Shown here one piece after another: positions 1 through 57,691 of a stretch of 64,000 nucleotides of DNA. Numbering within the stretch: position 1 is the first letter of the stretch; the number at the start of each line of letters is the position of its first letter. The translations under genes were made by a program, and so were the position numbers. The stretch is taken from assembly GCA_030407315.1 (NCBI GenBank), contig JALQPE010000659.1:1-64000 (forward strand), in the 5' to 3' direction. The stretch comes from Asparagopsis taxiformis (taxonomy: Eukaryota > Rhodophyta > Florideophyceae > Bonnemaisoniales > Bonnemaisoniaceae). A model generated the notes under the pieces. It ran no database searches and was not told the origin of the DNA. It saw only the letters and a list, made by a program, of their open reading frames with translations.

Positions 1-370
1 TTTCTTTACCGGGTAAAAAAATTGTGGCCGCTGTAATGAAACGTTTTCTTACAGCAAAGTCATCGTAACGATGACTTTGCTGTAAGGAACCGTTTTCTTG
101 CAGTGGCCAAGAATTTTTTACCGGGTAAAAAATCAGCAAGAAATTTTACCGGGTAAAAAATTGTGGCCGCTGTAATGTTTTGCTTTCTTACAGCAAAGTC
201 ATCGTTACGATGACTTTGCTGTAAGAAAACGTTTCATTACAGCGGCCACAATTTTTTTACCCGGTAAAGAAATCATGGCTGCTGTAATGATTTGTTTTCT
301 TACAGCAAAGTCATCGTAACGATGACTTTGCTGTCAGCATCCCCGGTAAACGGCCCGCACTGTAATGGGG
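1..370. repeat. Palindrome cluster P1 (three 37 bp palindromes)
   Basis: Three copies of a 37 bp perfect palindrome with a one-base centre (arms TTACAGCAAAGTCATCGT) lie at 49-85, 188-224 and 300-336. The last ends in TCA rather than TAA. They are joined by spacers that are themselves inverted: GGTAAA boxes, AATTTTTTACC tracts and GGCCGCTGTAATG words. The cluster sits just 3' of the leftward ParB/methyltransferase/SET gene and closes with CCGGTAAACGGCCCGCACTG, which also ends the clusters near 12040 and 51060. The window opens inside the cluster, so its left end is unknown. Confidence 0.9.
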
Positions 371-641
371 TGACTGCTTCTCCTACATCGCTCTGTTACT
401 GGTGTTCTACATGCTGCGTTGCTACACAATTTCGCACTCACATCTTTCTAGTTTCTCTCCCTTTCGTATCCATAGGTATAGCAGTTGAAAAGTGGATAGT
501 TTGCACTCCAGGCCGCAGATGCCTTCCTGCAGTCATGTCACGATTGTTGTAGTGTAGTCTATAATATCTAGCGCTCTTGGAAGATGATGCACAGTCTATT
601 GTCTCTGTCAATGCGTGTTTACTCAAATCTATCAAAGTAGC

Positions 642-3600
642 TCAGTTAGCTGGCCAATATTTTCTACCATAGTCAGCAAATATCTCCTCATCAGCTTCAA
701 CGTCTCTGGTCAGAACGACCTTGACAGCATGGGGATTCTTGATATTCGAAGCAAAGTCCGGTTTGTCTATGGCATCGCCTTGTCGAAACTCGGCTGACTG
801 TGTTCGACTCACCTCGGTCGCTTTCTCCGTTCCGTCAATGACCCGACAATCATTGAGGTAGCTGGTACAATTATAGACCGCTGGAACGAGCCAGACCTTC
901 CGAACAGGTGCACCCCTCCCTATGTACGTGGTTTCCAATTCCATGTTGTAGTCCTGGAACCTCTGTCCTGTGCACCCAAATCCTTCCGGGCCGTACATCA
1001 CTGATCTCTGCGGTTCCGAGTCTCGAATCTTCGCATAGAAAATCGTCCCGTTGTACCAGCCAATGACCGTCCCCTTCTTCAGTTTCTTCGCCGCGAATAC
1101 GCCAAACCCACCACCTCTTACCTCCGATTGCGAAACATAGACACCGTAGAATGCGGCATCAGCAGCCAGAATCGCGTCCGGGTCTATGCTCCAAAACGAG
1201 TGCATGTCCTCGGCCGGCCACTGGTCCATAGGCACCCCGCTCAATCTGTGAAGCATAGAACCGTCCTTCTTCATTGACGCAACGAACACAAGCAGATGGT
1301 TCGGCAATGCTGTCACAGCAGGTAAACCTTCTGGTGCATCTGAGATGTGCTTCTGACGAAGCCTTGGAGCTTTTCCTGTGACCGGTACCGACTCGTCCCC
1401 AAGAATACTCTCCACCTCACACTGCAAGATCCCCCCATATCGCCCGGCTTTCACCTCACTGACGAAAGCATGCAGTATCCACTCCTGCGATGCATCGTGG
1501 CTCTTTTTTTCCTTCTCACACCCAATGAACCGACGATACGTACCATCCCTCAACGTCATACACGCTATGGCTGTGCTGTATGTTCCCGAGAAGAAATCCA
1601 TCACGATATCGTTCTGCTTCGAAAATCGTTCCAGAAGCTCACGAAGAGTGGTCAACGCCTTCTGCTCATGGCGCAGTCGGTTGTTCTGCCCATCGTATTG
1701 AGCTTCACCAGCCGACAACCTCGGAACGTTGTCAATCGCGTTGGTGAACCCAGGGTGCCTCGATATGTCCGGATTGTGCAACCTGTAATCCACCATATCG
1801 TATGCAGCCATACCCTTCCCCCGCTTATACGCATGGATAACGAAATCGTGCATATTATGCAGTGTGCACGTTTTCGTCGATGGATTGGACGTAAAGCTGT
1901 GTGGTCGGCGAGATAGCACGACTGGAACACTGTCCACAATCATCTTGCCAGGCTCGGCATTTCTGATTGCATCCATCCATGCCACGAGTTGGCGCACGCT
2001 GGAATAGATTAGAGCATGACCGCCAGGCCGAAGAACTCGAACTATTTCACACGCAACACTCGCCAACTCTTCCGGCTCCAGAATATCGTACTCCGAGTTT
2101 TCTCTGCCGCCTTCCCGCCTCGTGTTGAATGGAGGATCAGTGAGCACAAGCTGAACACTGTCCTCCAACACGCCATCTTCCAGGAAACTAATTTTGTCCT
2201 CCACCTCTTTGGCTACATCAGTGGCGTCACAATTCACAGTGTGAATGTAACGCCCCATCACAGCTTCCAGCTTGGTGACATATTCCGGCTTGGATTCCTT
2301 TCCGACGTCAACGAGCGGTGCTTCTGTAGGCGATACAGTGTCAACCTCCATAGCGTCATCCTCGGCCGCACCTTCTCTTGTTGCTGTTTCGCTAGCAACC
2401 GCCGCATTATCGTCCTCTCCACCACCGCGCTCCAGCCTAGCCTTCTTCCTCTGTGGCTCCAGACTATCCTCTTCTATATCCTCGCTGCCATTGTTTGGCA
2501 CTGCTGCGGATATTTCCATCTGCGCAGGTGCACCTTCAAGGATGCCAGGCTCGGGCGTATCCTCAAGACTGTGCAACTCATCCATGGTCAGAGGAAGCTT
2601 TCGTTGCTCTCGGGTTCGCAATAACCAAGCCTTCAGCCTCCTCTGACCATCCAGGGCATGAGACGTGTTCAACTTGGCTCGCATGAACGAGTTCAATCCG
2701 AACTTGTCAGGAGTGTCGAAAAGCAAGGCTCGAAGTCTCTGCATCAGCTGACCACGCTCGGCGAACACATTCACCTCAGTGACACATTGGCGTATCGACA
2801 GCAGGAAGGCGCTTGTCAATGATCGCAGCCTTGCATCCACAGCCACTGGAAGGTCGGCACAGAACCCGTTTTCACTGTCTACAGTTTTCGGGACAATGGT
2901 CAGGTTTTTCCGATGCTCCTCGACCGCGCAGCCATCAGACCGATTCGGGAGTGACCTGAAGCAAAGGCTCGCAGGATCGAATACCATGAACGGCCAGCAC
3001 ATCGATTCAACATCCTCATACCCCAACACTCTTGCCCCGGTATCCCACGCAGCTAACACACGGTCGACAACAAATCCAAGCTGGTTGGCTTGCGCACTGG
3101 ATGTTGCAATTCCAACCATTCCACCACCACCAATGGCCCCGGATGTGGCTCTGGCCCGCCTAGATGGCGCACTGCCCATCTCCTTACTGCGAATAGCCAA
3201 GATACACTGGCACATCATAACCATCAGCCTCCTGAACCGCTTCTGGCTAGCCTGCAAAGAATCTTGCATGTCGGATGTAGCGCCGTCTAGAAAGTACCTG
3301 CTCGAAAGCAGTTCGCGGTTCAGTGGAGAGGACAATTCTCCGCGGGGTGTCTTGCCAAACATTTCGACGGCACGAGAACTAGTCACCCCCACCTGTTTCG
3401 GAAACTCAACCATCCTCGGAGAATCACCCATCTCTGCATTGAGTCCCCATGCATGACAAAACATTTGCCACAGACGCAAATCAATCGCACTCGAATCTTC
3501 TGCTCGGTGATACGGCCGAAGCACAGCCAGGATAGACATGCATGAGCTGTACTGCGGTTTACCACTCAGGCTTGAAGCAATTTGGCCGCTTGGATCGCAG

Positions 3601-4108
3601 GACTTGATCCAGCCCAACACATCGGCCATCCTCACAGACGAAATATGAGCGTACTTGTCCTTTCCTTTTTGGACCCAGTACTCGTCTCTGAGATCAACGG
3701 CGATCATCAGATACTCAACAAACATCATGCGCCTTTGCAGGCCTGCAATGTCGTTGGATGTCGTCGCTCTCACACGGTCCAGCACAACAGCAGTACTGCT
3801 GTTGGTGTCCGCCACGATAGACTCTTCTCGCATAGGAATCGTAACGCCAGGAGGAAAGACGCCCTTCTCCATTCCACGTACAATTGCCATGCAGCGGTGC
3901 GCTCCATCCAATATCTCCAGAACGCCTTCTCGAAACCTGCCAGTCACGGATGAGCTGTGTCATAACCGCTGTTGCGAATGCTCTCCATGAGCGCTTCCAC
4001 ATGACTTGCATCAACATCGCGAATCGATACGAATTTGCTGACTTGATTGGGGTCGATGAACACCCATCCGTCGTGCTTTTCACCGTGATTGTGGAACGTT
4101 CCTTCCAT
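642..4108 (-). pseudogene. ParB-like / DNA methyltransferase / SET fusion, copy 1 (one frameshift)
   Basis: One frame runs open for 1101 residues from 3947 to a TGA at 642. The true start is probably the ATG at 4108-4106, in a perfect GCCATGG context, giving about 1155 residues. A 1 bp deletion near 3952, absent from copy 2, breaks the first 53 codons off. Counting from codon 3947: a ParB/sulfiredoxin-type DGAHR motif (14-18), a long helical region, a basic KKAR stretch inside acidic low complexity (near 500), a methyltransferase with TDPPF (motif IV, 603-607) before DFFSG (motif I, 784-788), then a SET domain (about 935-1098) with RGGGFGVF, YLNDC and FADYGRKYW. Motif order IV-then-I is that of beta-class N6-adenine/N4-cytosine DNA methyltransferases (N6_N4_Mtase family). 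ParB-plus-methylase pairs are known from phages and bacteria; the added SET domain is eukaryotic. Likely nuclear, modifying both DNA and protein (inference). Domain calls are strong; activity is untested. Confidence 0.88.
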
Positions 4109-4631
4109 GGCGAACAAAGGTAGAGTTTTTAAGAAAGGGATAGTTGGTTGCTGCTTGACCAGGGTGGCGCAAAGCAGAAGTTGGTTGTTTAAAACAAAGT
4201 GTCAGCGAGTGGTAGCACTTCGGTGGCTGTTTCCTTTCCACCCCTGTCCGAACCTTTACAAGATAACTACATCGACTGTTAGCTCAATAATCAATGTAAT
4301 ACTAAAGTAATACTCAAAATATTTTTCCATGCAATTTATTGGGCCCCGTAACATCTCTAAGCGTATCTTTGTAGTCCAATCGTATGCATCCGACATTCAC
4401 TTCTAGAACGATTATTCACATCAAATTTTATGCTGCAATCAGTTCATGGCAGACGTGTCAATTTCAGTTCATGACTGACGTGTCAATTTTGTCAATTGTC
4501 CATTCTATTTCTACACCACCTAAACATCTCTTCTGGACCTTTCCAATCCTCCTAGTATATACTACTCTTTAGCAGAAGGTAACGGTTAGGCTTTCACTAA
4601 TACAACAATTCTATCCCATAGCTATCCCAAC
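4109..4631. other. Intergenic gap between divergent genes
   Basis: About 520 bases lie between the starts of the leftward SET gene and the rightward Tudor-like frame, so any promoter for either would be here. It is AT-rich from about 4260. I see no convincing motif and no repeat of the palindrome family. Confidence 0.5.
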
Positions 4632-6040
4632 ATGCTTCCTCTCGCTCCAAACGACGTTATAGAAGTTCAATGGGAACTTCGGCCGTTTGGGAGGAAACGA
4701 AAAATTGTGTGGTGGTCTGCAATCGTCAAGGAAATTACTCAGGTCAAGACCGAAACAGACCCATTCCTCCATGCATTGCTCGAATACAAAGCTGGATATG
4801 GTTTCGACTCTACCCTTTCTCAAGTCAAGATTTCAGATCGTAACGAGCTCGTCGACAAGGATTCCGGAAGGGTTCTCCCGTGGCGAAGTGGTGAGCTTCG
4901 CAGTATGGACTCACCTGCATCCCCAGCAGAGAGAGACCCGGACTACGGCATTGACCACACTCGCCACCGCCACCGCGGCATCCTTCAAGATTGCACTGCG
5001 GATCAAATGAAGAAGACCATAGCAGAAATGCTGGCAAGATTGGAAAAGCTGGAGTCAGCTGCCAAACATCCTCTTCCCCTCCATTCGATTCCAACAGCTC
5101 CATGACCTCCTCTGCTCTGACTGTATGTAGCATTCTGTTTCAGAAGCTTGGTGTGTACACGGACAAGCCCCTCTCCCTCCGGATGACAAAATCCGAGCAC
5201 TCCAGGGGAATGCGACAAACATCGCAAGAAGAAATCAGAGTACAGGCTGACTGCTCCCTTGCTCAATTCCGCACTATTGCCATTCAATGCAAGGCGAAAG
5301 AGAATCGTGATGTTCTCTTCCTGCCGTCCTTTGAGGACATCACCTTTCCCTCTGGAAATGAGTCGGATCTTTCCATCATTTTCCCCACCTTTCAGGCACT
5401 ATGTGACTCCATAGGTACCTCGCAACACGGGTTCCAGAAAATATTGGTGAAGAGCAGGGCGGAACGCGATGGAGGCAGCTCATCGATTGTCCGAATTTTA
5501 GGAAATCTAGTCGACGTTGACTGCTCTCATGATGCTCCTTCTTCCGCATTTCTCGTCGGCTCATCTGCTTACGTCCTGTCCAGCCCAGACCAACGTATGA
5601 CAGTTCTTTGCAGAGACTCCTACGAGTTTGACCATGTCAACAATACATTTTTACATCCCCTATGTCTTAGCCAACTATCACAGTCTAGCATCGTGGACTC
5701 TTTCCACCTACGTGATAAGGCTACTGTTACTTATGGAGCAACGTTTTCGTTACTGTGGAGACGTATTCAGCGCCGAGCTTGTTACAGCACTTTCCAGCCT
5801 CTATCAACCGCAGAGACGTTGGTACACTACATCTACGCTTACCTTGCTGTATTTTCAGTGGTACTACTATATGCCAGGAGCTTGAAGACATTGGCTATGA
5901 GGCTATCTCTCGTCTTGGCTTCAATGCGGATTCAGACACTACCCACCCACCCTCTCCTCCACCTGCCACCTGCAGTCCGGAGCAAAAATGATAAAGCACA
6001 CCTATCCGTAGTTATCCTGTTCCTGGGTATTCCATTCTAG
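4632..6040 (+). pseudogene. Decayed gene with a Tudor/chromo-like N-terminus
   Basis: The first frame (4632-5105, 157 codons) starts MLPLAPNDVIEVQWEL and contains a WWSAIVKEI stretch followed by LLEYKAGYGF. This pattern suggests a small SH3-like barrel of the Tudor type, then a coiled-coil tail (EMLARLEKLES). A second frame opens at 4991-6040. Either a frameshift near 5080 or an intron with a donor near 4890 (GTGAGC) and an acceptor at 5142 (TTTCAG) could join them; I cannot decide. After about 5740 the plausible protein jumps frame again, so the 3' part is decayed. The whole gene is missing from copy 2 of the repeat. If the barrel is real, a chromatin-reader role would fit its neighbours, but that is a guess. 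Confidence 0.45.
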
Positions 6041-6306
6041 AGCTCCTGTGGCCATCAATTTCTAGTAAAGACGGATACCCTCGCCCCTTCCTACTTCGAC
6101 TATTCCACTACCTGTCTCTGCGCTGTTCCTTCGACTTGACACTATCGTCTGACTGGTTTCCTGATGTCTCGCACCTATCTACTTCCATCTATTACAAAAT
6201 TCACCTCAACAGAAATTTTATTTCTTCATTCTTCGTCTACTACACCGAAACTGGTTTCATCCGATACTACTCCCTTCATTCTCGATTTCATCATCGACGA
6301 ATACCT

Positions 6307-7791
6307 TCACATATTCTGCATCTCCTCCGTCCTCTTCCATAGACCTGAAGCTCTCCTCCAGCACTGATTCCCCCCATCGTCTACGTTCAGTTCTTCATAT
6401 CTATCACGCGATATAGTCAAAACCTCCTCATTCATGAACCGACTACTCACCCGCTCCCCGGGAAGAAGCAGTTTCACTGCTTCATTGATTTCCCGGATTT
6501 GCGCTCCTTCCACCTCTGTTCCACTTTGAAATTTCAAAATCGTTCGGAACCCGTATGCAAGTATGTAGATGAATTGCAAGGAGTATTCTGAACGTCGCAG
6601 GAACATGTTCTTATCAGAACATTGCGTGTAGGCGACTGCAAAGTTCAGTGCAACCTCTACTAAATTGATCCTCCTAGTCAAAAACCTCTTGTCCGGTTCT
6701 CCAATTATTTGAACTTCGTACTCGACTTTGAATAGCATTTCTTTTCGCACTGCAATGAAGTCGCGAAGAATCTTCATATTCTTGTCATCCATTGCTGCAC
6801 GCTCCGCTGCATTCATTTTCCTCTGCGCCGAGTACAGACTTGGAACTGACTCAATGTCCAGCCCACCGTCGTGCAAATGATGCTCCATTCGGACTGAACC
6901 TTGAAACCCACTGTATAGAACGAATCCAAGATCTCGGATGAACCGGTTTCGCACATGATCTCTGGACTTGTTCATAAACCCGGTCACTGCTGTGAGTGCC
7001 GATTTCGTCACAGTGATGCCTACCTCCTTTCTGTGCAACGGCCCATTGTCTCCAACCTTTCTTCGCTTCTGCTTTCGAGCGGCCCCATCACTTCCCTCGG
7101 ACGTCCCATGCATTCCATCCATGCGAGCAGAGTCCGTTCCGCGAATTGTCTCCTCAATGGTCCCGGTAGTCACATACCCCCGCGCCCTCCACCGTTCGAT
7201 ACCTTCCGACGTTCCATTGGAGCTGGAACGGTCTCCTCCCTCTCTGAAAGAATTGTTTTGACACGTATTCTTGATTAAAGAGGTCACAACTTGGCAGCGC
7301 AATTCAATGTGGTTCCGGCCGGCAAGCGTCCTATTGAACACATCCTTTCGCTCATTGCTCTGCCTGGCGAACATCAGCGTATTGATTAGCTGGCATCCGT
7401 TGAAATGCCTATCCCTCTTATCCACCATTGCCTTCGTGTACGTTGGAACAACAGCACACAGCACAGCACACACCATTTCGAACGTGAACGATTTCTCCGC
7501 ATCCTGCGCAATGCGGAGACGTTCCCTGTCCTTCTCGGAGGCGATCTTCTTCGGATGTCCTTGTCCCTGGCTCAGAAGCCCATCGACGATGCTCTTGACC
7601 TCCTGCATATCGGTGTTTAGCATGGAGACAGTCTTGGCGACATTTCCGAGAGTCTCGCGTAATTGAATGGTGCTCTTCTCGACGGCATCCATTTTATCAC
7701 TCAGGGCTTTCAACTCTGCAGTGATGTTCGAAAAGCCCTCACGCGTTATTTCGGAAAATGCGGCGATGCTTACGGAGGTTTCGGGATTCAT
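6307..7791 (-). pseudogene. Conserved coiled-coil protein of unknown function, copy 1
   Basis: The frame starts at the ATG at 7791-7789 (MNPETSVSIAAFSEI). An upstream extension would need a GTG start, so I reject it. It is open for about 494 codons. Residues 10-80 are heptad-rich and predict a coiled coil. The middle is rich in charged and Ser/Gly residues with a KQKRRK basic patch. The C-terminal half is ordered, with a conserved KSRDHVRNRFIRDLG segment. I recognise no family. Near 6367 this copy has lost one base relative to copy 2, which replaces the acidic C-terminus with a short wrong tail ending at 6307. Conservation in both copies suggests a structural or DNA-binding accessory protein of the element. 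Confidence 0.7.
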
Positions 7792-8285
7792 CTTGACCTT
7801 GCAATTGGAGTTTGCTAAAAGGAGAATTGCTTTGAAGGATGTCACGCTTAGTACAGCAGTGTTGTAGCAAATATCATTTCAGTGGATGCATCCATCCTGG
7901 TCTACTCTACATAATAATAATGCTTCCCAGTGCTCCGTAACGGTTATTTTTCATAATTTAGTGGTGGATGGTGCGTATTCTTTCCTTTGCCACCACCCAC
8001 GTCCTGTGCATACCACACCTCGCTACCAGACTGACGTCTCCTACTAGACACTTTCAATGCAAAGATAGATAGGTATAATTTGAAATGCTAAACTCAACAT
8101 ATTATAGCTACTATGTACATTCTCTCCTTACGGTGAGACAAACCAGATATGTTCTGTTCTCCCAATCTTCCTTTCTCCAACGTCCTATTCAGCATCTAGC
8201 TTCCCCGCACCCAACTATCTGTAAAGCACCATCACAATTAATATAGTCGTATACCACACACCATTCCAATATTTACCTTCACACC
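7792..8285. other. Non-coding stretch upstream of the coiled-coil gene
   Basis: About 490 bases of pyrimidine-rich, AT-leaning DNA separate the coiled-coil gene from the CACTA-type end. It is conserved in copy 2 (56813-57299). I find no gene. A promoter for the leftward coiled-coil gene would have to lie here. Confidence 0.5.
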
Positions 8286-8693
8286 AACACTATGCTCCAT
8301 ATTTCCTCTAAGTCCACTCCACCAGACAGTGTTGTCAAACAATGCACGGTACTACCCGCAGACAATACAATTTGCTATCTACACTACTGTCTACAGATTT
8401 CCCCAGACAGTGCAGTAATACAGTACAATGTATTGTCTCAGACAGTAAAATGTACTGTCTGCACATACTGTCTGGCGGCAACACTTCCGGACAGTAAAAT
8501 TTACTGTTCTGGACAGTAAATTTTACTGTTTTTGGTACTGTCCAGATTTCGTGCCAGTTTACTGCTGCAGCAGTATTCTGAAATTTCCAGACAGTAAATT
8601 TTACTGTCTCCGCGCACTGTCTTGGCCAGACAGTAATTTTTACTGTCTCAGACAGTAAATTTACTGTCTGTTTTCATTCTCAACACCGTAGTG
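8286..8693. mobile_element. CACTA-type right terminus of copy 1
   Basis: The terminus ends in TCAACACCGTAGTG at 8693, the reverse complement of the CACTACGGTGTTGA that starts the nested element at 35013. Inside it I count sixteen GACAGT/ACTGTC words in both orientations, many paired as CAGACAGTAAA...TTTACTGTCTG, which are typical subterminal transposase-binding repeats of CACTA/Mirage/Chapaev (CMC) elements. The same terminus occurs at 49100-49506 and 57300-57691. The matching left end of this copy lies outside the window. Confidence 0.88.
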
Positions 8694-11789: not shown

Positions 11790-12012
11790 CGCGCAGCTCG
11801 TTGGCGAGAGTAGTGGTTCGAATTGCATAGACTACAACAATCCTGACATGACTGCAGGAAGGCATCTGCGGCCTGGAGTGCAAACTACCTAATTTTCTAC
11901 TGCTATACCTATGGGTACGACTAGAAGAGAAACTAGAAAGATGTGAGTGAGAAATTGTGTAGCAACGCAGCATGTAGAACACCAGTAAGAGAGCGATGTA
12001 GGAGAAGCAGTC

Positions 12013-12115
12013 ACCCCATTACAGTACGGGCCGTTTACCGGGGATGCTGACAGCAAAGTCATCGTTACGATGACTTTGCTGTAAGGAACCCTGGTAAACG
12101 GCTTCGGCTGTAAGC
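12013..12115. repeat. Palindrome cluster P2 (one palindrome)
   Basis: One 37 bp palindrome is flanked by GGGCCGTTTACCGGGGATGC on the left and CCTGGTAAACGGCTTCGG on the right. The flanks are imperfect inverted copies, so the whole unit is a nested palindrome. It lies 3' of the ParB/2OG fusion gene. The mirror copy is at 50970-51065. Confidence 0.85.
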
Positions 12116-36330: not shown

Positions 36331-36356
36331 CATCTCCATATCCGTCGGAAAAAAGA

Positions 36357-45236: not shown

Positions 45237-45249
45237 ACATCATTCGCTT

Positions 45250-45729: not shown

Positions 45730-46053
45730 GGTTATTGAAATTTTCAAGTGTTGCCAACTGCGCTGGACAACTGCAACGGAGCCTCTGTTTCGGACGATAG
45801 GGGTTTCTTGGGTTGCAGTGAACGAACTGGGTGTGTGTTAATCTGTCAATGCATAAAATCAACTTTTCGCGGTTGCTGCTTCCTCAAGCACTGTACCGGA
45901 GACCATAAGTTGTCAACTAGACCCACTTAGAAGGCTTGTAAATTGTTTCTTTACCTGCAATAAGAAATGTTTATAATAGTGCACAAGGAGAAAAAATCGC
46001 ATTTTAGAGCGAAGCAAGTTGGTAGCGAGCAAATGCCGGTCGATGTGTTTTAG

Positions 46054-47350: not shown

Positions 47351-47779
47351 GTGAAGCCGAGTGAACGATAGTGCGTTTGGACTGAGGCGACTGCAACGTG
47401 CTCGGAAATTTTATAAATTTGATGATGGAAGGGACAGACTGCCCTTCGTCTTCTGTGCGCTGATCTCATTGTACTTTGCTGATCTGCAAATCGTGCAGAT
47501 GATGCACCGTGGACAACCTCGGTCGTGTTGAACGTCTTTCCGATCGTGAACAACCGACCACGTCGCGGTCATGCCGCCATCCTCCCAACGCCCAATTCGC
47601 TTTTCCTTAACTTTCCAAACCATGCAACGACGAACGGTCCCGTTTGCCTTCCAGTCCTCCTCACTGTCCTCACTGCCATCGATTCGTCGAATCGGTTCCC
47701 AGCCGCTCACCTCCAACTTCTGCCGTCCCATCGTCCACTCTCACCCCGTGCAGTACCATGTCATTTCACGCCGACGACC

Positions 47780-48728
47780 ATGTCTGCCTTTCGGCTCACT
47801 CCGCGTCCCAACTCAGACAACGAGCAGCATGTTGCAACAGCGCGTGCAGTAACTCCGATGCGCCGTCGCGGTGCTGCTCCCGAGCAAAATCGCTTCTCTG
47901 AGGAGCAGCCATTGCCTTCTCAGCGCCGCTCCGATCTAATGGCACCAAAGCAAGTTGGCTTCTGGGCGCTCATTCCTTACATGGCAGCCACAGCAGTTGT
48001 CATGGCTTCGATGTAGGTAGCCAAGAAACGCTTTGTTGCCCGTCAGCAGCAGCTCGTGGCTGAATATGGTCAGCTTGTTGTGCTTTATGGTACCACGCCT
48101 GATTATATGCGTGAGGTCACCTCTGAGTACAAACGCAAACTTGGTCCAGGTATCTTGCGCGGTGCCTTGTTTTCCAGCTACTTGAGCAATCTCGTCACTG
48201 AGAAGACAATTGTACCATCGGCAATTCAAGATGTGGCTGTTATCAAAGCCCTGCTTAAAATTGGCAACGATAAGGCTGTGAATGTTTTCAAAAATCTTGC
48301 CCCGACGATGCAAGACGCGCCAAGTTTGCTCGGAAAACTACTCTTTCCTTGCAGAGCGCGTGCTGCCCCCAGAGCAAGTGCAGCGCCTGTCGCTCGTCCC
48401 GCTCTTTCCGTACAGCGAGAGTACAGTGCGAGATCTGCAGCGCAACATGCTCGAGCGATGCTATCGCGAATACGTGAATCAACAGATCGAGGAAAATGAA
48501 ATCCAAGAGGCGCCGATGACAGCTGCTGCCAATTTACGAATGGATGCATCAGATGCAAAGGTATTGTTCGATGGTATCATCCTCTCGAGACAGCGCAAAC
48601 GTGATGAGGAAGCAGCGGCCTTGGCTGCCGCTGAAGCCGAAGAGTCTACAAAGCCGCAAGTGGCTGAACTTGATTATCCTGCTAGATCTGGAGAACCGGC
48701 TGTTCATGCCGCATCTGTGTGGGGTTGA
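47780..48728 (+). pseudogene. Membrane-anchored alpha-helical protein, broken
   Basis: ATG at 47780 (MSAFRLTPRPN). One hydrophobic segment (WALIPYMAATAVVMASM) is followed by an in-frame TAG at 48014, and the same frame continues VAKKRFVARQQQLVAEYG to about 48345. A frameshift then leads to FLAERVLPPEQVQRLS, PYSESTVRDLQRNMLERCYR and an Ala/Glu-rich tail ending at a TGA at 48728. The helical part resembles plastid-envelope proteins of the Tic110 kind, but I would not insist. It is the last gene of the captured block. Confidence 0.45.
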
Positions 48729-49099
48729 GCGGCTAAAGCGGCGCAGTGTAGTACTTCCTCATAGCAGTTATTGTCTTTATTATCATTGAAAACTTTACTA
48801 TTAACAGAACTACTAAATCGACTTAACTAAATCTCAAACTCGAACTGTCACTGTCGCTGTTACGTGGCAGTACTACCAACGTGACTCAGAAGTGATTCAT
48901 TCCATGTCTTACAAAGATGATCCTATTGTGCTTATGTATGACATAAACCATCATACCCATCCGAAGGCGGTCGATCCGCTCTCCTGTAGAACTTATCTTC
49001 CCTCTTACTAACTTTGCTACCTACAAATATCTGAAAAGCTCCATCAAAATCAATATAGTCGTGAACCACAAACCATTCCAATATTTACCTTCAAATCAA
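48729..49099. other. Gap before the nested element's right end
   Basis: Begins in unrecognised DNA. From about 49040 it matches the DNA before the CACTA-type ends at 8230 and 57250. No gene. Confidence 0.5.
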
Positions 49100-49506
49100 C
49101 ACTATGCTCCATATTTTCTCTCAAGTCCACTCCACCAGACAGTGTTGTCAACCAATGCACATTACTACCCGCAGACAATACAATTTGCTATCTACACTAC
49201 TGTCTACAGATTTCCCCAGACAGTGCAGTATTCCAATACAATGCATTGCCTCGGACAGTAAAATGTACTGTCCGCGCATACTGTCTGGCGGCAACACTTC
49301 CGGACAGTAAAATTTACTGTTCTGGACAGTAAATTTTACTGTTTTTGGTACTGTCCAGATTTCGTGCCAGTTTACTGCTGCAGCAGTATTCTGAAATTTC
49401 CAGACAGTAAATTTTACTGTCTCCGCGCACTGTCTTGGCCAGACAGTAATTTTTACTGTCTCAGACAGTAAATTTACTGTCTTTTTTCATTCTCAACACC
49501 GTAGTG
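49100..49506. repeat. Right subterminal repeats of the nested element
   Basis: Almost identical to 8286-8693, with the same series of CAGACAGT/TACTGTC words and the closing TCAACACCGTAGTG. Confidence 0.9.
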
Positions 49507-50502
49507 CGATGAGAATGTGGCCGCCGTTCTCCCCAGCGCAATTGCGTCTGGCAGCCGGATGAAGTACTACATGGAAAGTACGACGGTGGAGACGGTTCGG
49601 GCGGAAATGAGGGCGGCAGCATTCCATGCAGCTGCATCGCCGGGTGCTGAGGATACGGTGGTGGACAGGTACTTTGCGGTGAAGCGGGCGTTGTTGGAAC
49701 ACTTGGGTTATTGTTATGGAAGGCCTGTTGGCATCGTCCACGGCTGGTAATGCGACGCATGAGTTGTTCGGACACTTCGCTAGGCAATTCCCGCTGGTTG
49801 AGGAGGTTGAAAAACCCTCCCAGCAGTCTGATTCTAATGATGACGACAGGGAGCCACAGGACGAGCCGCCAGCTTTCGCAAAGCCCGGCTTCGATCCTTC
49901 GCCGTGGCAGTTCATCCACAACGTGGGTGATGCGAAGGACCGCATCGATGGTGGTCGTGGGCGCCTCACTCTGCCGCGGCGTGAGTTGTGCGACAAGTTG
50001 GAGGAGGGCAATTTGGAGATGTATAAGAACAAGTTGGTGGCAGAGCTTGCTCTTGGTGTTTGTGCGGAGTAAGACAGGATTCCGGCTGCTTCTTACAGCA
50101 GATGGGGCTGCGGACCAGGATGGGCACACGGACTTCAAGGTAACGACGAATAGTCATGGCAGTCCTACCAAGTCTCCATCATATTTCATGATGTCGAGCG
50201 GAGCCGATGGGTTCTTTATAGTAGCTGCGCCTTATAGTCATGTATGCCTAGTCAATCCGGACGCTGATATGTGGAAGGTTCCCCCTCTCACCTTTTGGGT
50301 GCCGCCCTATTCCGTATTGGTTGGTCGCGGTGACCTTTACCATTACGGGGTCGGCTTCAGCCGAGGAGATCTTCCTGCAGGCGAGAAGTTAGTCTATGGC
50401 CTGCCCACGCGCGGCCACATCTACTTGAAGACGGAGAAGGACGTCCTCACAGACCACATCCACACCGTCGAATATTACAAGTACGATAGGAGCAATAGAT
50501 AG
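49507..50502 (+). pseudogene. ParB/2OG fusion, right-arm copy, 3' part
   Basis: Continues the gene cut at 35012. It first reads SAIASGSRMKYYMESTTVET in one frame to 49750, then shifts (NATHELFGHFARQF) to 50072, and shifts again to the 2OG-like domain with GHTDF, SPSYFMMSSGADGFF, YHYGVGF and RGHIYLK, ending at a TAG at 50500-50502. The same two frame changes occur in the left arm, so they were there before the arms separated, or the arms convert each other. Confidence 0.72.
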
Positions 50503-50969
50503 CATACCAGAAGTATAAAAACCTATACTACTGTTCCCTGCTAAAAAGTTCTGTCTTTCTCACCTCAACATTGTTATCTTAGCCCACTTTTCGGTTTTCA
50601 TCTATACATCTGTCCTTCATCTCATACTTTAGTGCTACTCAGCAGATTGCTTGCTACTTTTTAATATTAGTCTACAACGTTGCATGATTTTACTAGCTAG
50701 GCCGTAGGGGAAGACTAGTTTCGACCCTTGACAACGCGCAGATTTCGACTACGAGAGCCGTCACTGTGATAAATTATTGGTAGAATTTTCGTCTATCTTC
50801 CCACCTACACTAGGCTACCTATATATATACAGGGTATACCCTGAACAGAGACCACGTGAGCTAAAATACTCCTGAGAGCTGCTCACAGCCGTACAGACCT
50901 TTCCTGAGCAATTTTCCCGACTTCAAACTTCGCTTCTCACCTTTACCAAGATGGGAGAACTCCCTGCTG

Positions 50970-51065
50970 CTTACAGCCGAAGCCGTTTACCAGGGTTCCT
51001 TACAGCAAAGTCATCGTAACGATGACTTTGCTGTCAGCATCCCCGGTAAACGGCCCGCACTGTAA
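50970..51065. repeat. Palindrome cluster P11
   Basis: Mirror of cluster P2, with one palindrome between CTTACAGCCGAAGCCGTTTACC and CCGGTAAACGGCCCGCACTG. Its right part equals 300-366 of copy 1, where the cluster has two more palindromes, so the copy number changes between elements. Confidence 0.86.
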
Positions 51066-51341
51066 TGGGGTGACTGCTTCTCCTACATCGCTCTCTTACT
51101 GGTGTTCTACATGCTGCGTTGCTACACAATTTCTCACTCACATCTTTCTAGTTTCTCTTCTAGTCGTACCCATAGGTATAGCAGTAGAAAATTAGGTAGT
51201 TTGCACTCCAGGCCGCAGATGCCTTCCTGCAGTCATGTCAGGATTGTTGTAGTCTAGTCTATAATATCTAGCGCTCTTGGAAGATGATGCACAGTCTATT
51301 GTTCCTGCCAATGCGTGTTTATTCAAATATATCAAAGTAGC

Positions 51342-54300
51342 TCAGTTAGCTGGCCAATATTTTCTACCATAGTCGACAAATATCTCCTCATCAGCTTCAA
51401 CGTCTCTGGTCAGAACGACCTTGACAGCATGGGGATTCTTGATATTTGAAGCAAAGTCCGGTTTGTCTATGGCATCGCCTTGTCGAAACTCGGCCGACTG
51501 TGTTCGACTCACCTCGGTCGCTTCCTCCGTTCCGTCAATGACCCGACAATCATTGAGGTAGCTGATACAATTATAGACCGCAGGAACGAGCCAGACCCTC
51601 CGAACAGGTGCATCCGTCCCTATGTGCGTGGTTTCCAACTCCATGCTGTAGTCCTGGAACCTCTCTCCTGTGCACCCAAATCCTTCCGGGCCGTACATCA
51701 CTGATCTCTGCGGTTCTGAGTCTCGAATCTTCGCGTAGAAAATCGCCCCGTTGTAGCAGCCAATGACCGTCCCCTTCTTCAGTTTCTTCGCCGCGAATAC
51801 GCCAAACCCACCACCTCTTACCTCCGATTGCGAAACATAGACACCGTAGAATGCGGCATCGGCAGCCAGAATCGCGTCCGGGTCTATGCTCCAAAACGAG
51901 TGCATGTCCTCGGCAGGCCACTGGTCCATAGGCACCCCGCTCAATCTGTGAAGCATAGACCCGTCCTTCTTCATTGACGCAACGAACACAAGCAGATGGT
52001 TCGGCAATGCTGTCACAGCAGGGAATCCTTCTGGTGCGTCTGAGATGTGCTTCTGACGAAGCCTTGGAGCTTTTCCTGTGACCGGTACCGACTCGTCCCC
52101 AAGAATACTCTCCACCTCACGCTGCAAGATCCCCCCATATCGCCCGGCTTTCACCTCACTGACGAAAGCATGCAGTATCCACTCCTGCGATGCATCGTGG
52201 CACCTTTTTTCCTTCTCACACCCAATGAACCGACGATACGTACCATCCCTCAACGTCATACACGCTATGGCTGTGCTGTATGTTCCCGAGAAGAAATCCA
52301 TCACGATATCGTTCTGCTTCGAAAATCGTTCCAGAAGCTCACGAAGAGTGGTCAACGCCTTCTGCTCATGGCGCAGTCGGTTGTTCTGCCCATCGTATTG
52401 AGCTTCACCAGCCGACAACCTCGGAACGTTGTCAATCGCGTTGGTGAACCCAGGGTGCCTCGATATGTCCGGATTGTGCAACCTGTAATCCACCATATCG
52501 TACGCAGCCATACCCTTCCCCCGCTTATACGCATGGATAACGAAATCGTGCATATTATGCAGTGTGCACGTTTTCGTCGATGGATTGGACGTAAAGCTGT
52601 GTGGTCGGCGAGAAAGCACGACTGAAACACTGTCCACAATCATCTTGCCAGGCTCGGCATTTCTGATTGCATCCATGCCACGAGTTGGCGCACGCTGGAA
52701 TAGATCAGAGCATGACCGCCAGGCCGAAGAACTCGAACTATTTCACACGCAACACTCGCCAACTCTTCCGGCTCCAGAATATCGTACTCCGAGTTTTCCC
52801 TGCCGCCTTCCCGCCTCGTGTTGAATGGAGGATCAGTGAGCACAAGCTGAACACTGTCCTCCAACACGCCATCTTCCAGGAAACTAATTTTGTCCTCCAC
52901 CTCTTTGGCTACATCAGTGGCGTCACAATTCACAGTGTGAATGTAACGCCCCATCACAGCTTCTAGCTTGGTGACGTATTCTGGCTTGGTTTCCTTTCCG
53001 ACGTCAACGAGCGGTGCTTCTGTAGGCGATACAGTGTCAACCTCCATAGCGTTATCCTCGTCCGCACCTTCTCTTGTTGCTGTTTCGCTAGCAACCGCCG
53101 CATTGTCGTCCTCTCCACCACCGCGCTCCAGCCTAGCCTTCTTCCTCTGTGGCTCCAGACTATCCTCTTCCATATCCTCGCTGCCATTGTTTGGCACTGC
53201 TGCCGATGTTCCATCTGCGCAGGTGCACCTTCAAGGATGCCAGGCTCGGGCGTATCCTCAAGACTGTGCAACTCATCCATGGTCAGAGGAAGCTTTCGTT
53301 GCTCTCGGGCTCGCAATATCCAAGCCTTCAGCCTCCTCTGACCATCCAGGGCATGAGACGTGTTCAACTTGGCTCGCATGAACGAGTTCAATCCGAACTT
53401 GTCAGGAGTGTCGAAAAGCAAGGCTCGAAGTCTCTGCATCAGCTGACCACGCTCGGCGAAAACATTCACCTCAGTGACACATTGGCGTATCGACAGCAGG
53501 AAGGCGCTTGTCAATGATCGCAGCCTTGCATCCACTGCCACTGGAAGGTCGGCACAGAACCCGTTTTCACTGTCTACAGTTTTCGGGACAATGGTCAGGT
53601 TTTTCCGATGCTCCTCGACCGCTCAGCCATCAGACCGATTCGGGAGTGACCTGAAGCAAAGGCTCGCAGGATCGAATACCATGAACGGCCAGCACATCGA
53701 TTCAACATCCTCATACCCCAACACTCTTGCCCCGGTATCCCACGCAGCTAACACAAGGTCGACAACAAATCCAAGCTGGTTGGCTTGCGCACTGGATGTT
53801 GCAATTCCAACCATTCCACCACCACCAATGGCCCCGGATGTGGCTCTGGCCCGCCTAGATGGCTCACTACCCATCTCCTTACTGCGAATATCCAAGATAC
53901 ACTGGCACATCATAACCATCAGCCTCCTGAACCGCTTCTGGCTAGCCTGCAAAGAATCTTTCATGTCGGGTGTAGCGCCGTCGAGAAAGTACCTGTTCGA
54001 AAGCAGTTCGCGGTTTAGTGGAGAGGACAATTCTCCGCGGGGTGTCTTGCCAAACATTTCGACGGCACGAGAACTAGTCACCCCCACCTGTTTCGGAAAT
54101 TCAACCATCCCTGGAGAATCACCCATCTCTGCATTGAGTCCCCATGCATGACAAAACATTTGCCACAGACGCAAATCAATCGCACTCGAATCTTCTGCTC
54201 GGTGATACGGCCGAAGCACAGCCAGGATAGACATGCATGAGCTGTACTGCGGTTTACCACTCAGGCTTGAAGCAATTTGGCCGCTTGGATCGCAGGATTT

Positions 54301-54804
54301 GATCCAGCCCAACACATCAGCCATTCTCACAGACGAAATATGAGCGTACTTGTCTTTCCCGTTTTGGACCCAGTACTCGTCTCTGAGATCAACGGCGATC
54401 ATCAGATACTCAACAAACATCATGCGCCTTTGCAGGCCTGCAATGTCGTTGGATGTCGTTGCTCTCACACGGTCCAGCACAACAGCAGTACTGCTGTTGG
54501 TGTCCGCCACGATAGACTCTTCTCGCATAGGAATCGTAACGCCAGGAGGAAAGACGCCCTTCTCCATTCCACGTACAATTGCCATGCACCTGTGCGCTCC
54601 ATCCAATATCTCCAGAACGCCTTCTCGAAACCTGCCAGTCACGGGATGAGCTGTGTCATAACCGCTGTCACGAATGCTCTCCATGAGCGCTTCCACATGA
54701 CTTCCATCGACATCGCGAATCGATACGAATTTGCTGACTTGATTGGGGTCGATGAACACCCATCCGTCGTGCTTTTCACCGTGATTGTGGAACGTTCCTT
54801 CCAT
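51342..54804 (-). pseudogene. ParB-like / DNA methyltransferase / SET fusion, copy 2
   Basis: The start ATG is at 54804-54802 in GCCATGG, with an intact N-terminus (MEGTFHNHGEKHDGWVFIDP; DGAHR near residue 72) that copy 1 has lost. Three lesions follow relative to copy 1: a TGA at 53620-53622 (Cys to stop), a 1 bp deletion near 53207 and a 4 bp deletion near 52674. The methyltransferase TDPPF, DFFSG and the SET motifs RGGGFGVF, YLNDC and DYGRKYW are all present, the last with one Ala-to-Val change just before (IFVDYG). The lesions do not overlap with that of copy 1. Confidence 0.88.
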
Positions 54805-55296
54805 GGCGAACAAAGATAAAGTTTTTAAGAAGGGGATAGTTGGTTGCTGCTTGACCAGGGTGGCGCAAAGCAGAAGTTGGTTGTTTGAAACAAAGTGTCA
54901 GCTAGTGGTAGCACTTCGGTGGCTGTTTCCTATCCACCCCTGTCTGAACCTTTACAAGATAACTATATCGACTGTTAGCTCAATATTCAATGTAATACTA
55001 AAGTAATACTCAAAATATTTTTCCATGCAATTTATTGGGCCCCGTAACATCTCTAAACGTATCTTTGTAGTCCAATCGTATGCATCCGACATTCACTTCT
55101 AGAACGTTTATTCGCATCCTGATTCGCGACTATTCCACTGTCTGTCTCTACGCTGTTCCTTCGACTTGACACTATCGTCTGACTGGTTTTCTGATGTCTC
55201 GTATCTATCTACTTCCATCTATTACAAAATTCAACTCAACAGAAATTTTATTTCTTCATTCTTCGTCTACTATACCGAAACCGGTTTCATCCGATA
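54805..55296. other. Gap between copy-2 genes (deletion junction)
   Basis: Matches 4109-4414 and then 6090-6300 of copy 1, so the Tudor-like gene is absent. The join is near 55110-55125 (TTCGCATCCTGATTCGCGAC). No target duplication can be made out. Confidence 0.65.
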
Positions 55297-56812
55297 CTAC
55301 TCCCCTTCATTCTCGATTTCATCATCGACAAATACCTTCACATATTCTTCATCTCCTCCGTCCTCTTCCATAGACCTGAAGCTCTCCTCCAGCACTGAGT
55401 CCCCTCCATCGTCTACATTCAGTTCTTCATATCTATCACGCGATATAGTCAAAACCTCCTCATTCATAAAACGACTACTCACCCGCTCCCCGGGAAGAAG
55501 CAGTTTCACTGCTTCATTGATTTCCCGGATTTGCGCTCCTCCCACCTCTGCTCCACTTTGAAATTTCAAAATCGTTCGGAACCCGTATGCAAGTATGTAG
55601 ATAAATTGCAAGGAGTATTCTGAACGTCGCAGGAACATGTTCTTATCAGAACATTGCGTGTAGGCGACTGCAAAGTTCAGTGCAACCTCTACTAAATTGA
55701 TCCTCCTAGTCACAAACCTCTTGTCCGGTTCTCCAATTATTTGAACTTCGTACTCGACTTTTCTTTCGCACAGCAATGAAGTCGCGAAGAATCTTCATAT
55801 TCTTGTCATCCATTGCTGCGCGCTCCGCTGCATTCATTTTCCTCTGCGCCGAGTACAGACTTGGAACTGACCCAATGTCCAGCCCATCGTCGTGCAAATG
55901 ATGCTCCATGCCGACTGAACCTTGAAACCCACTGTATAGAACGAATCCAAGATCTCGGATGAACCGGTTTCGCACATGATCTCTGGACTTGTTCATAAAC
56001 CCGGTCACTGCCGTGAGTGCCGATTTCGTCACAGTGATGCCAACCTCCTTTCTGTGCAACGGCCCATTTTCACCAACCTTTCTTCGCTTCTGCTTTCGAG
56101 CGGCCCCATCACTTGCCTCAGACGTCCCATTCATTCCATCCATGCGGGCAGAGTCCGTTCCGCGAATTGTCTCCTCAATGGTCCCGGTAGTCACATACCC
56201 CCGCGCCCTCCATCGTTCGATACCTTCCGACGTTCCATTGGAGCTGGAACGGTCTCCTCCCTCTCTGAAAGAATTGTTTTGACACGTATTCTTGATTAAA
56301 GAGGTCACAACTTGACAGCGCAATTCAATGTGGTTCTGGCCGGCAAGCGTCCTATTGAACACATCCTTTCGCTCATTGCTCTGCCTGGCGAACATCAGCG
56401 TATTGATTAGCTGGCATCCGTTGAAATGCCTATCCCTCTTATCCACCATTGCCTTCGTGTACGTTGGAACAACAGCACACAGCACAGCACACACCATTTC
56501 GAACGTGAACGATTTCTCCGCATCCTGCGCAATGCGGAGACGTTCCCTGTCCTTCTCAGAGGCGTTCTTCTTCGGATGTCCTTGTCCCTGGCTCAGAAGC
56601 CCATCGACGATGCCCTTGACCTCCTGCATATCGGTGTTTAGCATGGAGACAGTCTTGGCGACATTTCCGAGAGTCTCGCGTAATTGAATGGTGCTCTTCT
56701 CGACGGCATCCATTTTATCACTCAGGGCTTTCAGCTCTGCAGTGATGTTCGAAAAGCCCTCACGCGTTATTTCGGAAAATGCAGCGATGCTCACGGAGGT
56801 TTCGGGATTCAT
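55297..56812 (-). pseudogene. Conserved coiled-coil protein of unknown function, copy 2
   Basis: Starts at the ATG at 56812 like copy 1. An 11-base deletion near 55765 shifts the frame after DFIAVRK. The rest follows in another frame and ends with an acidic tail (EEDGGDEEYVKVFVDDEIEN) at a TAG at 55297, which is the genuine C-terminus lost in copy 1. Family unknown. Confidence 0.7.
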
Positions 56813-57299
56813 GTTGAACTTGCAATTGGAGTTTGCTAAAAGGAGAAGTGCTTTGAAGGAAGGATGTCACGCTTAGTACAGCAGTGTTGTAGCAAATATC
56901 TTCTCAGTGGATGCATCCATCCTGTTCTACTCTACATAATAATAATGCTTCTCGGTGCTCCGTAACGGTTATTTTTCATAATTTAGTGGTGGATGGTGCG
57001 TATTCTTTCCTTTACCACCACCCACGTCCTGTACATACCACACCTCGCTACCAGACTGACGTCTCCTACTCGACACTTTCAATTCAAAGATAGATAGGTA
57101 TAATTTGAAATGCTAAACTCAACATAATATAGCTACTATGTACATTCTCTCCTTACAGTGAGACAAACGAGATATGTTCAATCTTCCCTATTTTTCTTTC
57201 TACAACGTCCTATTCAGCATCTGGCTTCCCCGCACCCAACTATCTGTAAAGCACCATCACAATTACTATAGTCGTATACAACACACCATTCCAATATTT
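56813..57299. other. Non-coding stretch, copy 2
   Basis: Counterpart of 7792-8285, with small differences. No gene. Confidence 0.5.
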
Positions 57300-57691
57300 A
57301 CCTTCACACCAACACTCCATATTTCCTCTAAGTCCACTCCACCAGACAGTTTTGTTAACCAATGCACGGTACTACCCGCAGATAATACAATTTGCTATCT
57401 ACACTACTGTCTACAGATTTCCCCAGACAGTGCAGTAATAAAATACAATGCACTGCCTCAGACAGTAAAATGTACTGTCTGCACATACTGTCTGGCGGCA
57501 ACACTTCCAGACAGTAAATTTTACTGTTTTTGGGACTGTCCAGATTTCGTGCCAGTTTATTGCTGCAGCAGTATTCTGAAATTTCCAGACAGTAAGTTTT
57601 ATTGTCTCCGCGCACTGTCTTGGCCAGACAGTAATTTTTACTGTCTCAGACAGTAAATTTACTGTCTTTTTTCATTCCCAACACCGTAGTG
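57300..57691. mobile_element. CACTA-type right terminus of copy 2
   Basis: Ends CCAACACCGTAGTG at 57691, one base different from the other two ends. The CAGACAGT/TACTGTC words are as in copy 1, with one pair missing. Copy 2 therefore closes like a CMC-superfamily element. Its left end is not found in the window. Confidence 0.88.

What the first reader, a model, noticed from the sequence alone, without database searches (positions are those of the whole stretch)
300..57691. A mobile DNA/chromatin-modification kit: three ParB-type fusions, methylases, SET, oxygenases and transposases in one element family
The arm, the core and the right-hand gene block are physically continuous on the right side (28126 to 57691). 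Within them are three different DGxHR proteins, two different beta-class DNA methyltransferases, one SET domain, two 2OG-like domains, a DUF7869 transposase, a coiled-coil protein and, in copy 1, a Tudor-like barrel. I know of no described eukaryotic transposon with this set. It could protect itself from silencing, mark its own ends, or control its own copy number.
Basis: partly seen in the sequence, partly recalled or inferred. Interest (0 to 1): 0.92.

Follow-up and report, generated by a model that had tools for sequence, protein, structure and literature searches.

The report
CACTA-like transposon carrying chromatin-modifying enzymes
A jumping gene with hundreds of copies in one eukaryote-like genome, many of them nearly identical, carries its own DNA- and histone-modifying enzymes fused to a bacterial-type ParB-like domain, which suggests that it may write and erase chemical marks around itself.

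Summary
Element A is a CACTA-like DNA transposon of about 26.4 kb (a composite size; no copy was read end to end): 14-bp inverted repeat CACTACGGTGTTGA, clustered subterminal motifs, and a 2-bp target duplication shown for its relative Z. It carries a 1288-aa putative transposase, two ParB-2OG-oxygenase-like proteins, one ParB-DNA-methyltransferase-SET protein and a coiled-coil-like protein. The methyltransferase motif occurs at 419 places and the left end at 1,106. Among best-scoring copies, spacing is nearly fixed (7 of 7, 11 of 11, 5 of 5 and 2 of 2 cross-checkable contigs); other pieces often depart from it. So A's kit travels together in young copies. Element X (DUF7869 plus a second ParB-methyltransferase, 2.44-kb inverted arms) is a separate transposon, found outside A at another locus and inserted in an A gene here. 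Z (35013-49506) is an insertion in A. A also carries arrays of a near-invariant palindrome of about 39 bp (31-bp core: 8,354 exact sites). I propose that the ParB-domain enzymes act on the element itself, most likely against silencing. Function, targets and host identity are untested.

The parts
1..8693 (+). Element A copy 1 (left part cut by contig start), right terminus at 8693
   Evidence: 296-8693 is 97.4%/95.1% to copy 2; 1-295 continues in C939 and C353 copies; 39 other scored genome copies end at query 693-703, i.e. window 8693 or up to 10 bases on; CACCGTAGTG terminus
642..4108 (-). ParB-MTase-SET gene of A copy 1; main frame 642-3959, N-terminal 62 codons in another frame at 3923-4108
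   Evidence: Pfam N6_N4_Mtase E 2e-16 and SET E 4e-6; DGAHR and DPPFN; tblastn of P0004
6307..7878 (-). Coiled-coil-like protein of A copy 1
   Evidence: open frame 523 aa; 39% homolog in L026
8001..8693 (+). Right subterminal region with GACAGTAA/TTACTGTC-type motifs
   Evidence: 11 motif hits in 8000-9000
11828..18041 (-). Inverted fragment of element A (ParB-2OG#2 and 3' end of ParB-2OG#1), truncated at 11828
   Evidence: self-BLAST; tblastn
12585..16000 (-). ParB-2OG#2 gene, left fragment, frame broken
   Evidence: DGSHR, HTD...H domain
18042..30549 (.). Element X: DUF7869 transposon with 2.44-kb terminal inverted arms, end AACGCTGGTTCCGAG
   Evidence: same element outside A at C2217:4496-23573, with a possible 4-bp TSD CTTG
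20908..23046 (-). DUF7869 protein of X (putative transposase)
   Evidence: Pfam DUF7869 E 2.5e-47
24674..27799 (+). ParB-MTase gene of X, three in-frame stops in this copy
   Evidence: 16 relatives at 32-49% identity (P0009-P0024)
30550..35012 (+). Element A copy 2, first part (3' end of ParB-2OG#1, ParB-2OG#2)
   Evidence: query 30550-33200 matched 38 other contigs (22 over nearly its whole length), 37 of them from its first base; uninterrupted site for X in C2330 (L113)
35013..49506 (+). [not shown]
   Evidence: termini and empty site; 14-bp perfect TIR
49507..57691 (+). Element A copy 2, second part, right terminus at 57691
51342..54897 (-). ParB-MTase-SET gene of A copy 2, frame broken in places
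   Evidence: (MTase E 1.6e-10, SET E 7e-8)
55399..56866 (-). Coiled-coil-like gene of A copy 2, frame broken
31290..31320 (.). Example D1 palindrome core (19 exact core sites in the window start at 52, 191, 303, 12051, 16513, 17271, 31290, 32047, 38518, 39311, 39425, 40201, 40342, 40482, 42293, 42391, 42440, 42489, 51003)
   Evidence: genome count; conservation
60860..64000 (+). Transposase-like protein P0003 of a second, divergent A-like element that continues beyond the window (coiled-coil-like and ParB-2OG-like genes in L026)
   Evidence: 45% to P0058; L026 homologs 39% and 35%

Best explanation
Element A is a large CACTA-like cut-and-paste DNA transposon (about 26.4 kb). SHOWN: termini; gene order and spacing in best-scoring copies; high copy number; intact putative-transposase frames in the copies scored; ParB-type domains fused to modifying enzymes; arrays of a near-invariant dyad palindrome that in the window lie only in A and Z. 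INFERRED: the 1288-aa protein is the transposase acting at the CACTA ends and subterminal motifs. The ParB-type domains bring the enzymes to the element's own DNA, possibly via the palindromes. There the methyltransferase writes N6-adenine or N4-cytosine methylation and SET a histone lysine mark, while the 2OG oxygenases remove a host mark. The net effect is permissive chromatin and escape from silencing, which allowed the recent burst. X is an independent DUF7869 transposon that carries a related ParB-MTase and landed in A.
For: Ends: 14-bp perfect TIR; subterminal motifs only at element ends and at 58.5-59.5 kb. TSD CG with the empty site in the left arm. Linkage: TPase start to near end of MTase-SET 15.67-15.78 kb in 7 of 7 contigs shared; MTase-SET query to right-end query 4036-4043 bp in 11 of 11 contigs shared; left end to TPase 2.51-2.65 kb in 5 of 5 contigs shared and the listed part; TPase start to right end 23.8 kb in 2 of 2 contigs shared. 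Copies: 419 motif places, 1,106 left ends, reversed-pattern controls 0. Youth: 36 of 36 scored TPase places (the query's own among them) are identical open 1288-aa frames; 39 of 39 other scored MTase-SET places are about 100% over 3.3 kb. Domains: ParB region of P0004 hits phrog_4272 (1.7e-5) and ParB-like phrog_1033 (0.003), MTase phrog_67 (4e-23). Constraint: A-type pairs at 38-45% aa identity have pN 0.39-0.44 against 0.55 in one wrong-strand control. Palindrome: 33 of 43 non-redundant sites exact, core 97% against flanks 47-48%; 8,354 exact cores genome-wide.
Against: No functional, methylome or expression data. The 2OG domain has no Pfam or PDB match. ParB is a weak profile match, and no ParB-palindrome link was shown. 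The divergent A-like element in L026 has a ParB-type protein but no D1 palindrome. The CMC motif H(3-4)H was not found in the putative transposase. SET and linker divergence does not differ from the wrong-strand control; two close transposase copies show no constraint (pS 0.025, pN 0.029). Each ParB-2OG copy read over most of its length has a frame break. Of 10 contigs with the ParB-2OG#2-side sequence inside the listing (which stops at C562), 3 show the MTase motif near the expected place and 7 do not; C489 has a transposase but no listed motif where expected, and C74 has it about 1.1 kb closer (contig lengths unknown).
Confidence: 0.55

Rival explanations
1. Self-restraint: the element deposits DNA and histone methylation on its own copies to limit transposition, comparable to the bdelloid N4CMT/SETDB1 loop.
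For: MTase and SET in one protein would couple DNA and histone writing; in bdelloid rotifers 4mC marks transposons and a SETDB1 variant prefers 4mC DNA (PMC8885841, passages read).
Against: Hundreds of copies, many near-identical, suggest recent activity rather than restraint. The oxygenases would then be unexplained.
Confidence: 0.2
2. Transposition co-factors: methylation of the subterminal repeats regulates transposase binding and excision, with no role in chromatin silencing.
For: Dense subterminal motifs at the ends; methylation effects on a soybean CACTA element are in print (PMC4219821, search listing only).
Against: Does not explain SET, the oxygenases, or palindromes placed between genes instead of at the ends.
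Confidence: 0.12
3. The 'kit' is largely a nesting or assembly effect: three elements stacked in one repeat-rich contig.
Against: A's own genes keep near-fixed spacing in the cross-checked best-scoring copies.
Confidence: 0.08
4. Passenger cargo: captured genes carried without benefit to the element.
For: CACTA elements are known to capture genes (recalled); Z carries an EamA-like fragment; ParB-2OG frames are broken in the copies read.
Against: A similar protein set recurs in an A-like element at 38-45% identity, with pN below the wrong-strand control.
Confidence: 0.05

Closest known systems
TET/JBP-bearing DNA transposons of fungi (KDZ, EnSpm, Plavaka and others; Kojima 2025, PMC12730594: abstract, passages and Introduction read)
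   Same: DNA transposons carrying an oxygenase proposed to counter methylation-based silencing; EnSpm/CMCT termini mostly CA..TG and 2-5 bp TSD
   Different: A carries ParB-fused oxygenase-like proteins without a TET/JBP profile match, plus a DNA methyltransferase and SET in one protein
HarbingerS and MuDR elements of Phytophthora encoding SET (cited in PMC12730594; original reports not seen)
   Same: SET histone methyltransferase carried by a DNA transposon
   Different: different transposon type; here SET is fused to ParB and a DNA methyltransferase
DNMT-bearing retrotransposons of dinoflagellates and charophytes (PMC5890265: abstract, outline and passages read)
   Same: transposon-encoded DNA methyltransferase, in hundreds of copies in Symbiodinium
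   Different: C5 DNMT in retrotransposons; here an N6/N4-type enzyme in DNA transposons
Bdelloid rotifer N4CMT (PMC8885841: passages read)
   Same: bacterial-type N6_N4 methyltransferase joined to a chromatin domain in a eukaryote
   Different: a resident gene with a chromodomain; no ParB, SET or transposase in that protein
CACTA/EnSpm transposons
   Same: CACTA termini, short TSD, subterminal repeats, large size
   Different: unusual putative transposase without Pfam match; epigenetic gene cargo; internal palindrome arrays
Phage DNA methyltransferases of phrog_67 and ParB-like phrog_1033
   Same: distant domain homology (phage tblastn about 25% identity)
   Different: transposon proteins of 900-1155 aa with SET or long linkers; the phage tblastn places listed (15 of 108 and 10 of 39 records) cover the MTase part alone

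Membership tests
CACTA/EnSpm (CMCT clade) for element A | Termini CACTA...TAGTG with short TIR | tested here: met
   14-bp perfect TIR CACTACGGTGTTGA (measured on Z, whose ends A shares); 1,106 left ends genome-wide, control 0
CACTA/EnSpm (CMCT clade) for element A | 2-5 bp TSD | tested here: met
   CG duplication with empty site, shown once, for Z, which shares A's ends; not shown for an A copy itself
CACTA/EnSpm (CMCT clade) for element A | Subterminal repeats near both ends | tested here: met
   motif clusters only at ends plus 58.5-59.5 kb
CACTA/EnSpm (CMCT clade) for element A | DDE transposase with C(2)C | tested here: inconclusive
   C(2)C at 669-672 after conserved D residues in P0058 and P0003; no Pfam match; no structure obtained
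CACTA/EnSpm (CMCT clade) for element A | H(3-4)H between second D and E | tested here: not met
   no H(3-4)H after residue 669; conserved H at 929, 936, 944, 954 with other spacing
TET/JBP-bearing transposons | TET/JBP dioxygenase domain | tested here: not met
   no TET/JBP match for the 2OG-like proteins at E up to 10, nor for the L021 relative at E up to 1; HxD...H only
ParB-type proteins | ParB/DGQHR domain | tested here: inconclusive
   phrog_4272 1.7e-5 and phrog_1033 0.003 for P0004; DndB 7e-4 and TIGR03187 0.015 for L014; no Pfam ParB match; DGxHR in all three window types
Beta-class N6/N4 DNA methyltransferase | DPPY/F motif IV before the FxGT-type motif I, and a Pfam match | tested here: met
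   17 of 17 members of A4 match PF01555
Beta-class N6/N4 DNA methyltransferase | methyltransferase activity | not testable with these tools
   no assay or modification data
SET histone methyltransferase | SET fold with catalytic motifs | tested here: inconclusive
   Pfam 27.5 bits, above cutoff 22.4; ends EEIFADYG; the usual NHxxxPN region looks atypical (consensus recalled)
DUF7869 transposons (element X) | TIR-bounded mobile unit with TSD | tested here: inconclusive
   2.44-kb arms met; a possible 4-bp TSD CTTG seen at one locus only

The most novel reading that the evidence does not exclude
A self-addressing epigenetic transposon. ParB-type domains recognise the element's own arrays of a palindrome of about 39 bp (31-bp core at 8,354 exact sites) as a parS-like address, perhaps spreading from it, and thereby deliver a DNA methyltransferase-SET writer and oxygenase erasers to every copy, making a private chromatin domain. 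It would be a bacterial-type partition system turned into eukaryotic chromatin targeting, evolved in at least two transposon families (A and X).
Probability: 0.18. Interest if true: 0.95.

Novelty: new variant of a known kind. Interest (0 to 1): 0.82.

Why it matters
Transposons that carry one epigenetic enzyme are known. Here one high-copy, apparently recently active element carries a fused DNA-methylation and histone-methylation writer, two oxygenase-like erasers and a candidate private address sequence. Near-identical copies within one genome make it possible to ask directly, with native long-read methylation data, whether a transposon can program its own chromatin, and whether some eukaryotic 6mA or 4mC signals come from transposon-encoded enzymes.

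Tried and rejected
X and A as one element: rejected, since X is complete and outside A at C2216/C2217/C617, although X fragments also adjoin A-type or Z-type sequence in C608 and C1973. The 6.5-kb surplus in the C2216/C2217/C617 copies is an LTR retroelement (488-bp identical repeats), not lost X sequence.

The viral-contig scan with the ParB-MTase alignment kept 80 loci of 222 relatives, at 20-43% identity over the methyltransferase part; these loci were not examined further. P0004 found none. The listed phage tblastn places covered the MTase domain only. PDB by sequence: weak DpnA match for P0004 (E 0.002), nothing for the 2OG protein.

dN/dS: one row (DUF7869 window against C2217) was out of frame and dropped. 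Coiled-coil against L027:4418-5578 gave 20% identity, no better than the control, so not claimed.

Host identity: not obtained; the Rfam SSU and PF00012 searches did not complete. Structure prediction was never accepted, so no fold evidence exists.

Print searches: DUF7869, 0 papers; ParB + DNA methyltransferase + transposon + SET domain + eukaryot, 2 papers, a fungal-metabolism and a METTL review judged unrelated from the listing; wider searches. They cover open-licence PMC papers only. PMC12695648 (6mA across eukaryotes) was searched for passages only (no 'ParB').

Full report
What the window is. The window is C659:1-64000 of an assembly of 141.5 Mb in 3,156 contigs; C659 has 74,607 bases. 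The size and the gene types point to a eukaryote, but host identity was not obtained. The window is a stack of mobile elements. Self-comparison and comparison with other contigs of the same genome separate three units, which I call A, X and Z.

Element X (18042-30549). X has 2.44-kb terminal inverted arms ending in AACGCTGGTTCCGAG. It has a DUF7869 protein (20908-23046, E 2.5e-47) and a ParB-type methyltransferase gene (24674-27799) with three in-frame stops in this copy. The same element stands outside A at one other locus, seen in three overlapping contigs (C2216, C2217, C617; 99.7-99.9% alike over their overlaps). There its flanks show a possible 4-bp duplication, CTTG, and an LTR retroelement of about 6.56 kb sits in its core. 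X fragments also adjoin A-type or Z-type sequence in C608 and C1973. A second, divergent DUF7869 plus ParB-MTase pair lies at C2216:137,646-143,861 (41-43% and 35% identity), so this pair also recurs. The protein database gave 48 hits for the X methyltransferase. I took 17 of them (P0009-P0025) as family members: sixteen at 32-49% identity, some partial, and P0025 at 28%. DGxHR and DPPY both occur in 8 of these 17 (P0009-P0012, P0014-P0017). DUF7869 gave 150 scored places of 502 candidates in this genome, with a stop inside the match in 2 of the rows listed, and rang in none of 14 control genomes.

Element A. The genes at 1-8693 and 51-57.7 kb, together with the 'arm' genes at 11.8-18.0 and 30.5-35.0 kb, belong to one element. 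Z (35013-49506) interrupts A copy 2 with a CG duplication, and the uninterrupted site is present in the left arm. Z and A share the right end, and Z supplies the left end: CACTACGGTGTTGA...TCAACACCGTAGTG, a 14-bp perfect inverted repeat. The motif GACAGTAA/TTACTGTC (with one-base variants) clusters at these ends and at 58.5-59.5 kb, and nowhere else in the window. Left of the window's A genes, other copies show a 1288-aa protein (P0058, L029) and a first ParB-2OG paralog. C2330 (L113) shows the uninterrupted site where X sits in that paralog in the window. In C939 a transposase (13,935), a ParB-2OG gene (L031, from 24,501) and MTase-SET (29,713) follow each other on one contig.

Do A's genes travel together? 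The genome search scores only the best places, so these checks favour young copies, and distances are between query matches. Contigs in both the MTase-SET list and the transposase list: 7 (C337, C353, C632, C939, C1569, C1708, C1830), all with 15.67-15.78 kb from transposase start to the near end of MTase-SET, on opposite strands; C1830 has a second transposase place without a listed partner. MTase-SET and right end: 11 contigs besides the window (C3, C116, C132, C289, C502, C706, C747, C770, C788, C870, C1608), all 4,036-4,043 bp; C1608 has a second right end without a listed partner. Left end (listed part to C229) and transposase: 5 contigs (C11, C74, C146, C150, C219), all 2.51-2.65 kb. Transposase start and right end: 2 contigs (C1869, C2208), both 23.8 kb. 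Added up, this makes about 26.4 kb; no single copy was read end to end. Departures: C74 has the MTase motif about 1.1 kb closer; C489 has a transposase but no listed motif where expected. Of 10 contigs with the ParB-2OG#2-side sequence inside the listing, C375, C293 and C548 show the MTase motif near the expected distance, C62, C66, C221, C239, C348 and C474 do not, and C134 has one 21.9 kb away. Contig lengths there are unknown, so some may simply end.

Copy number. The 54-base methyltransferase motif with up to 3 mismatches occurs 419 times (reversed control 0), and the 24-base left end with up to 2 mismatches 1,106 times (control 0). At least one locus appears in three contigs, so these counts may be inflated. 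All 36 scored transposase places, the query's own included, are identical 1288-aa open frames (2,179 candidates). The 39 other scored MTase-SET places are about 100% identical over 3.3 kb (541 candidates). The amplification of this subset is therefore recent.

Protein domains. P0004 (ENA, 99% to the window protein, its only relative found) matches phage profiles at residues 23-104 (phrog_4272, unknown function, 1.7e-5) and 30-78 (ParB-like, 0.003), a DNA methyltransferase profile (4e-23) and SET. The two methyltransferases of A and X are distant homologs (29% over 237 columns for P0004 against P0010, E 2e-18). The oxygenase assignment rests on H205, D207 and H277 being invariant in five sequences, with no library match; the ParB-2OG query found one relative, 97%. 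The coiled-coil and Tudor claims rest on weak or sub-threshold Pfam hits.

Constraint. A second A-like element, about 40% identical, lies between 60.8 kb and about 72 kb of C659, with transposase-like, coiled-coil-like and ParB-2OG-like genes. pN is 0.39 (transposase), 0.42 (coiled-coil) and 0.44 (ParB-2OG), and 0.40 for the methyltransferase domain of a divergent MTase-SET in L027, against 0.55 in one wrong-strand control; pS is near saturation throughout. For the X pair it is 0.43 (DUF7869) and 0.48 (ParB-MTase). The SET and linker parts (0.57, 0.55) do not differ from the control. Two close transposase copies, L029 and L025 (96% aa), show no constraint (pS 0.025, pN 0.029).

The palindromes. 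A 33-bp dyad, ACAGCAAAGTCATCGT-W-ACGATGACTTTGCTGT, recurs between A's genes and in Z but not in X (19 exact cores in the window). The 31-bp core is found exactly at 8,354 sites in the genome (control 0). Of 75 sites in fetched sequence, 43 non-redundant ones have 97% mean conservation in the core against 47-48% in flanks. Sites were picked by similarity to the core, which inflates the core value, but 33 of 43 are exact and conservation continues about 4 bp beyond the selected 31 bp on each side. Spacings under 400 bp are 49, 100, 111-114 and 138-142 bp. The divergent A-like element has no D1 site but other palindromes at 60024-60077 and 64370-64403 of C659; X has one per arm, the divergent X-type stretch has a 64-bp one, and L027:1-6500 has none. 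RNA folding of four stretches gave z -2.9 to -15, as such palindromes would, so a 3'-end hairpin role remains open.

Caveat on the window palindrome. Outside X, the two arms (13576-18041 and 30550-35012) differ at 13 of 4466 positions and show no direct duplication around X. Either an inverted duplication or an assembler turning round in X's near-identical arms explains this. No conclusion about A depends on it.

Mechanism. Shown: structure, linkage in best-scoring copies, copy number, domains. Inferred: transposase identity, targeting by the ParB-type domains, enzyme activities, and the anti-silencing role. The published parallels are transposons with TET/JBP (PMC12730594), SET (cited there) or DNMT (PMC5890265), and the bdelloid N4CMT system (PMC8885841); none of the passages read describes ParB fusions.

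Noticed in passing
[not shown]
   Followed up: no
L010:169-6730 (C2217:10169-16730): LTR retroelement with identical 488-bp LTRs inside X.
   Followed up: partly
L032:871-6797: Retrotransposon with gypsy-like gag/pol and a chromodomain-like end (judged by eye from the frames) beside an A copy's ParB-2OG gene, which starts abruptly at 7716.
   Followed up: no
L027:1568-3322: Divergent methyltransferase-SET protein (34% to P0004) near another A-type right end.
   Followed up: partly
P0025: A database protein of 996 aa has ParB-like, methyltransferase and an SET-like C-terminal stretch (by eye; Pfam calls no SET): the architecture may exist in another organism.
   Followed up: partly
18592-18627 and 29965-30000; C659:60024-60077 and 64370-64403; L013:9900-9963: Long palindromes that differ between element families, some centred on CACGTG.
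   Followed up: partly
L021:1407-3068: 553-aa 2OG-like protein related to A's oxygenase (30%), no Pfam match.
   Followed up: partly
8766-9644, 41438-42136: Tandem repeats with periods of 114, 127 and 172 bp.
   Followed up: no
57704-58284: 84% similar stretch about 1 kb left of X at C2216/C2217/C617; origin unknown.
   Followed up: no
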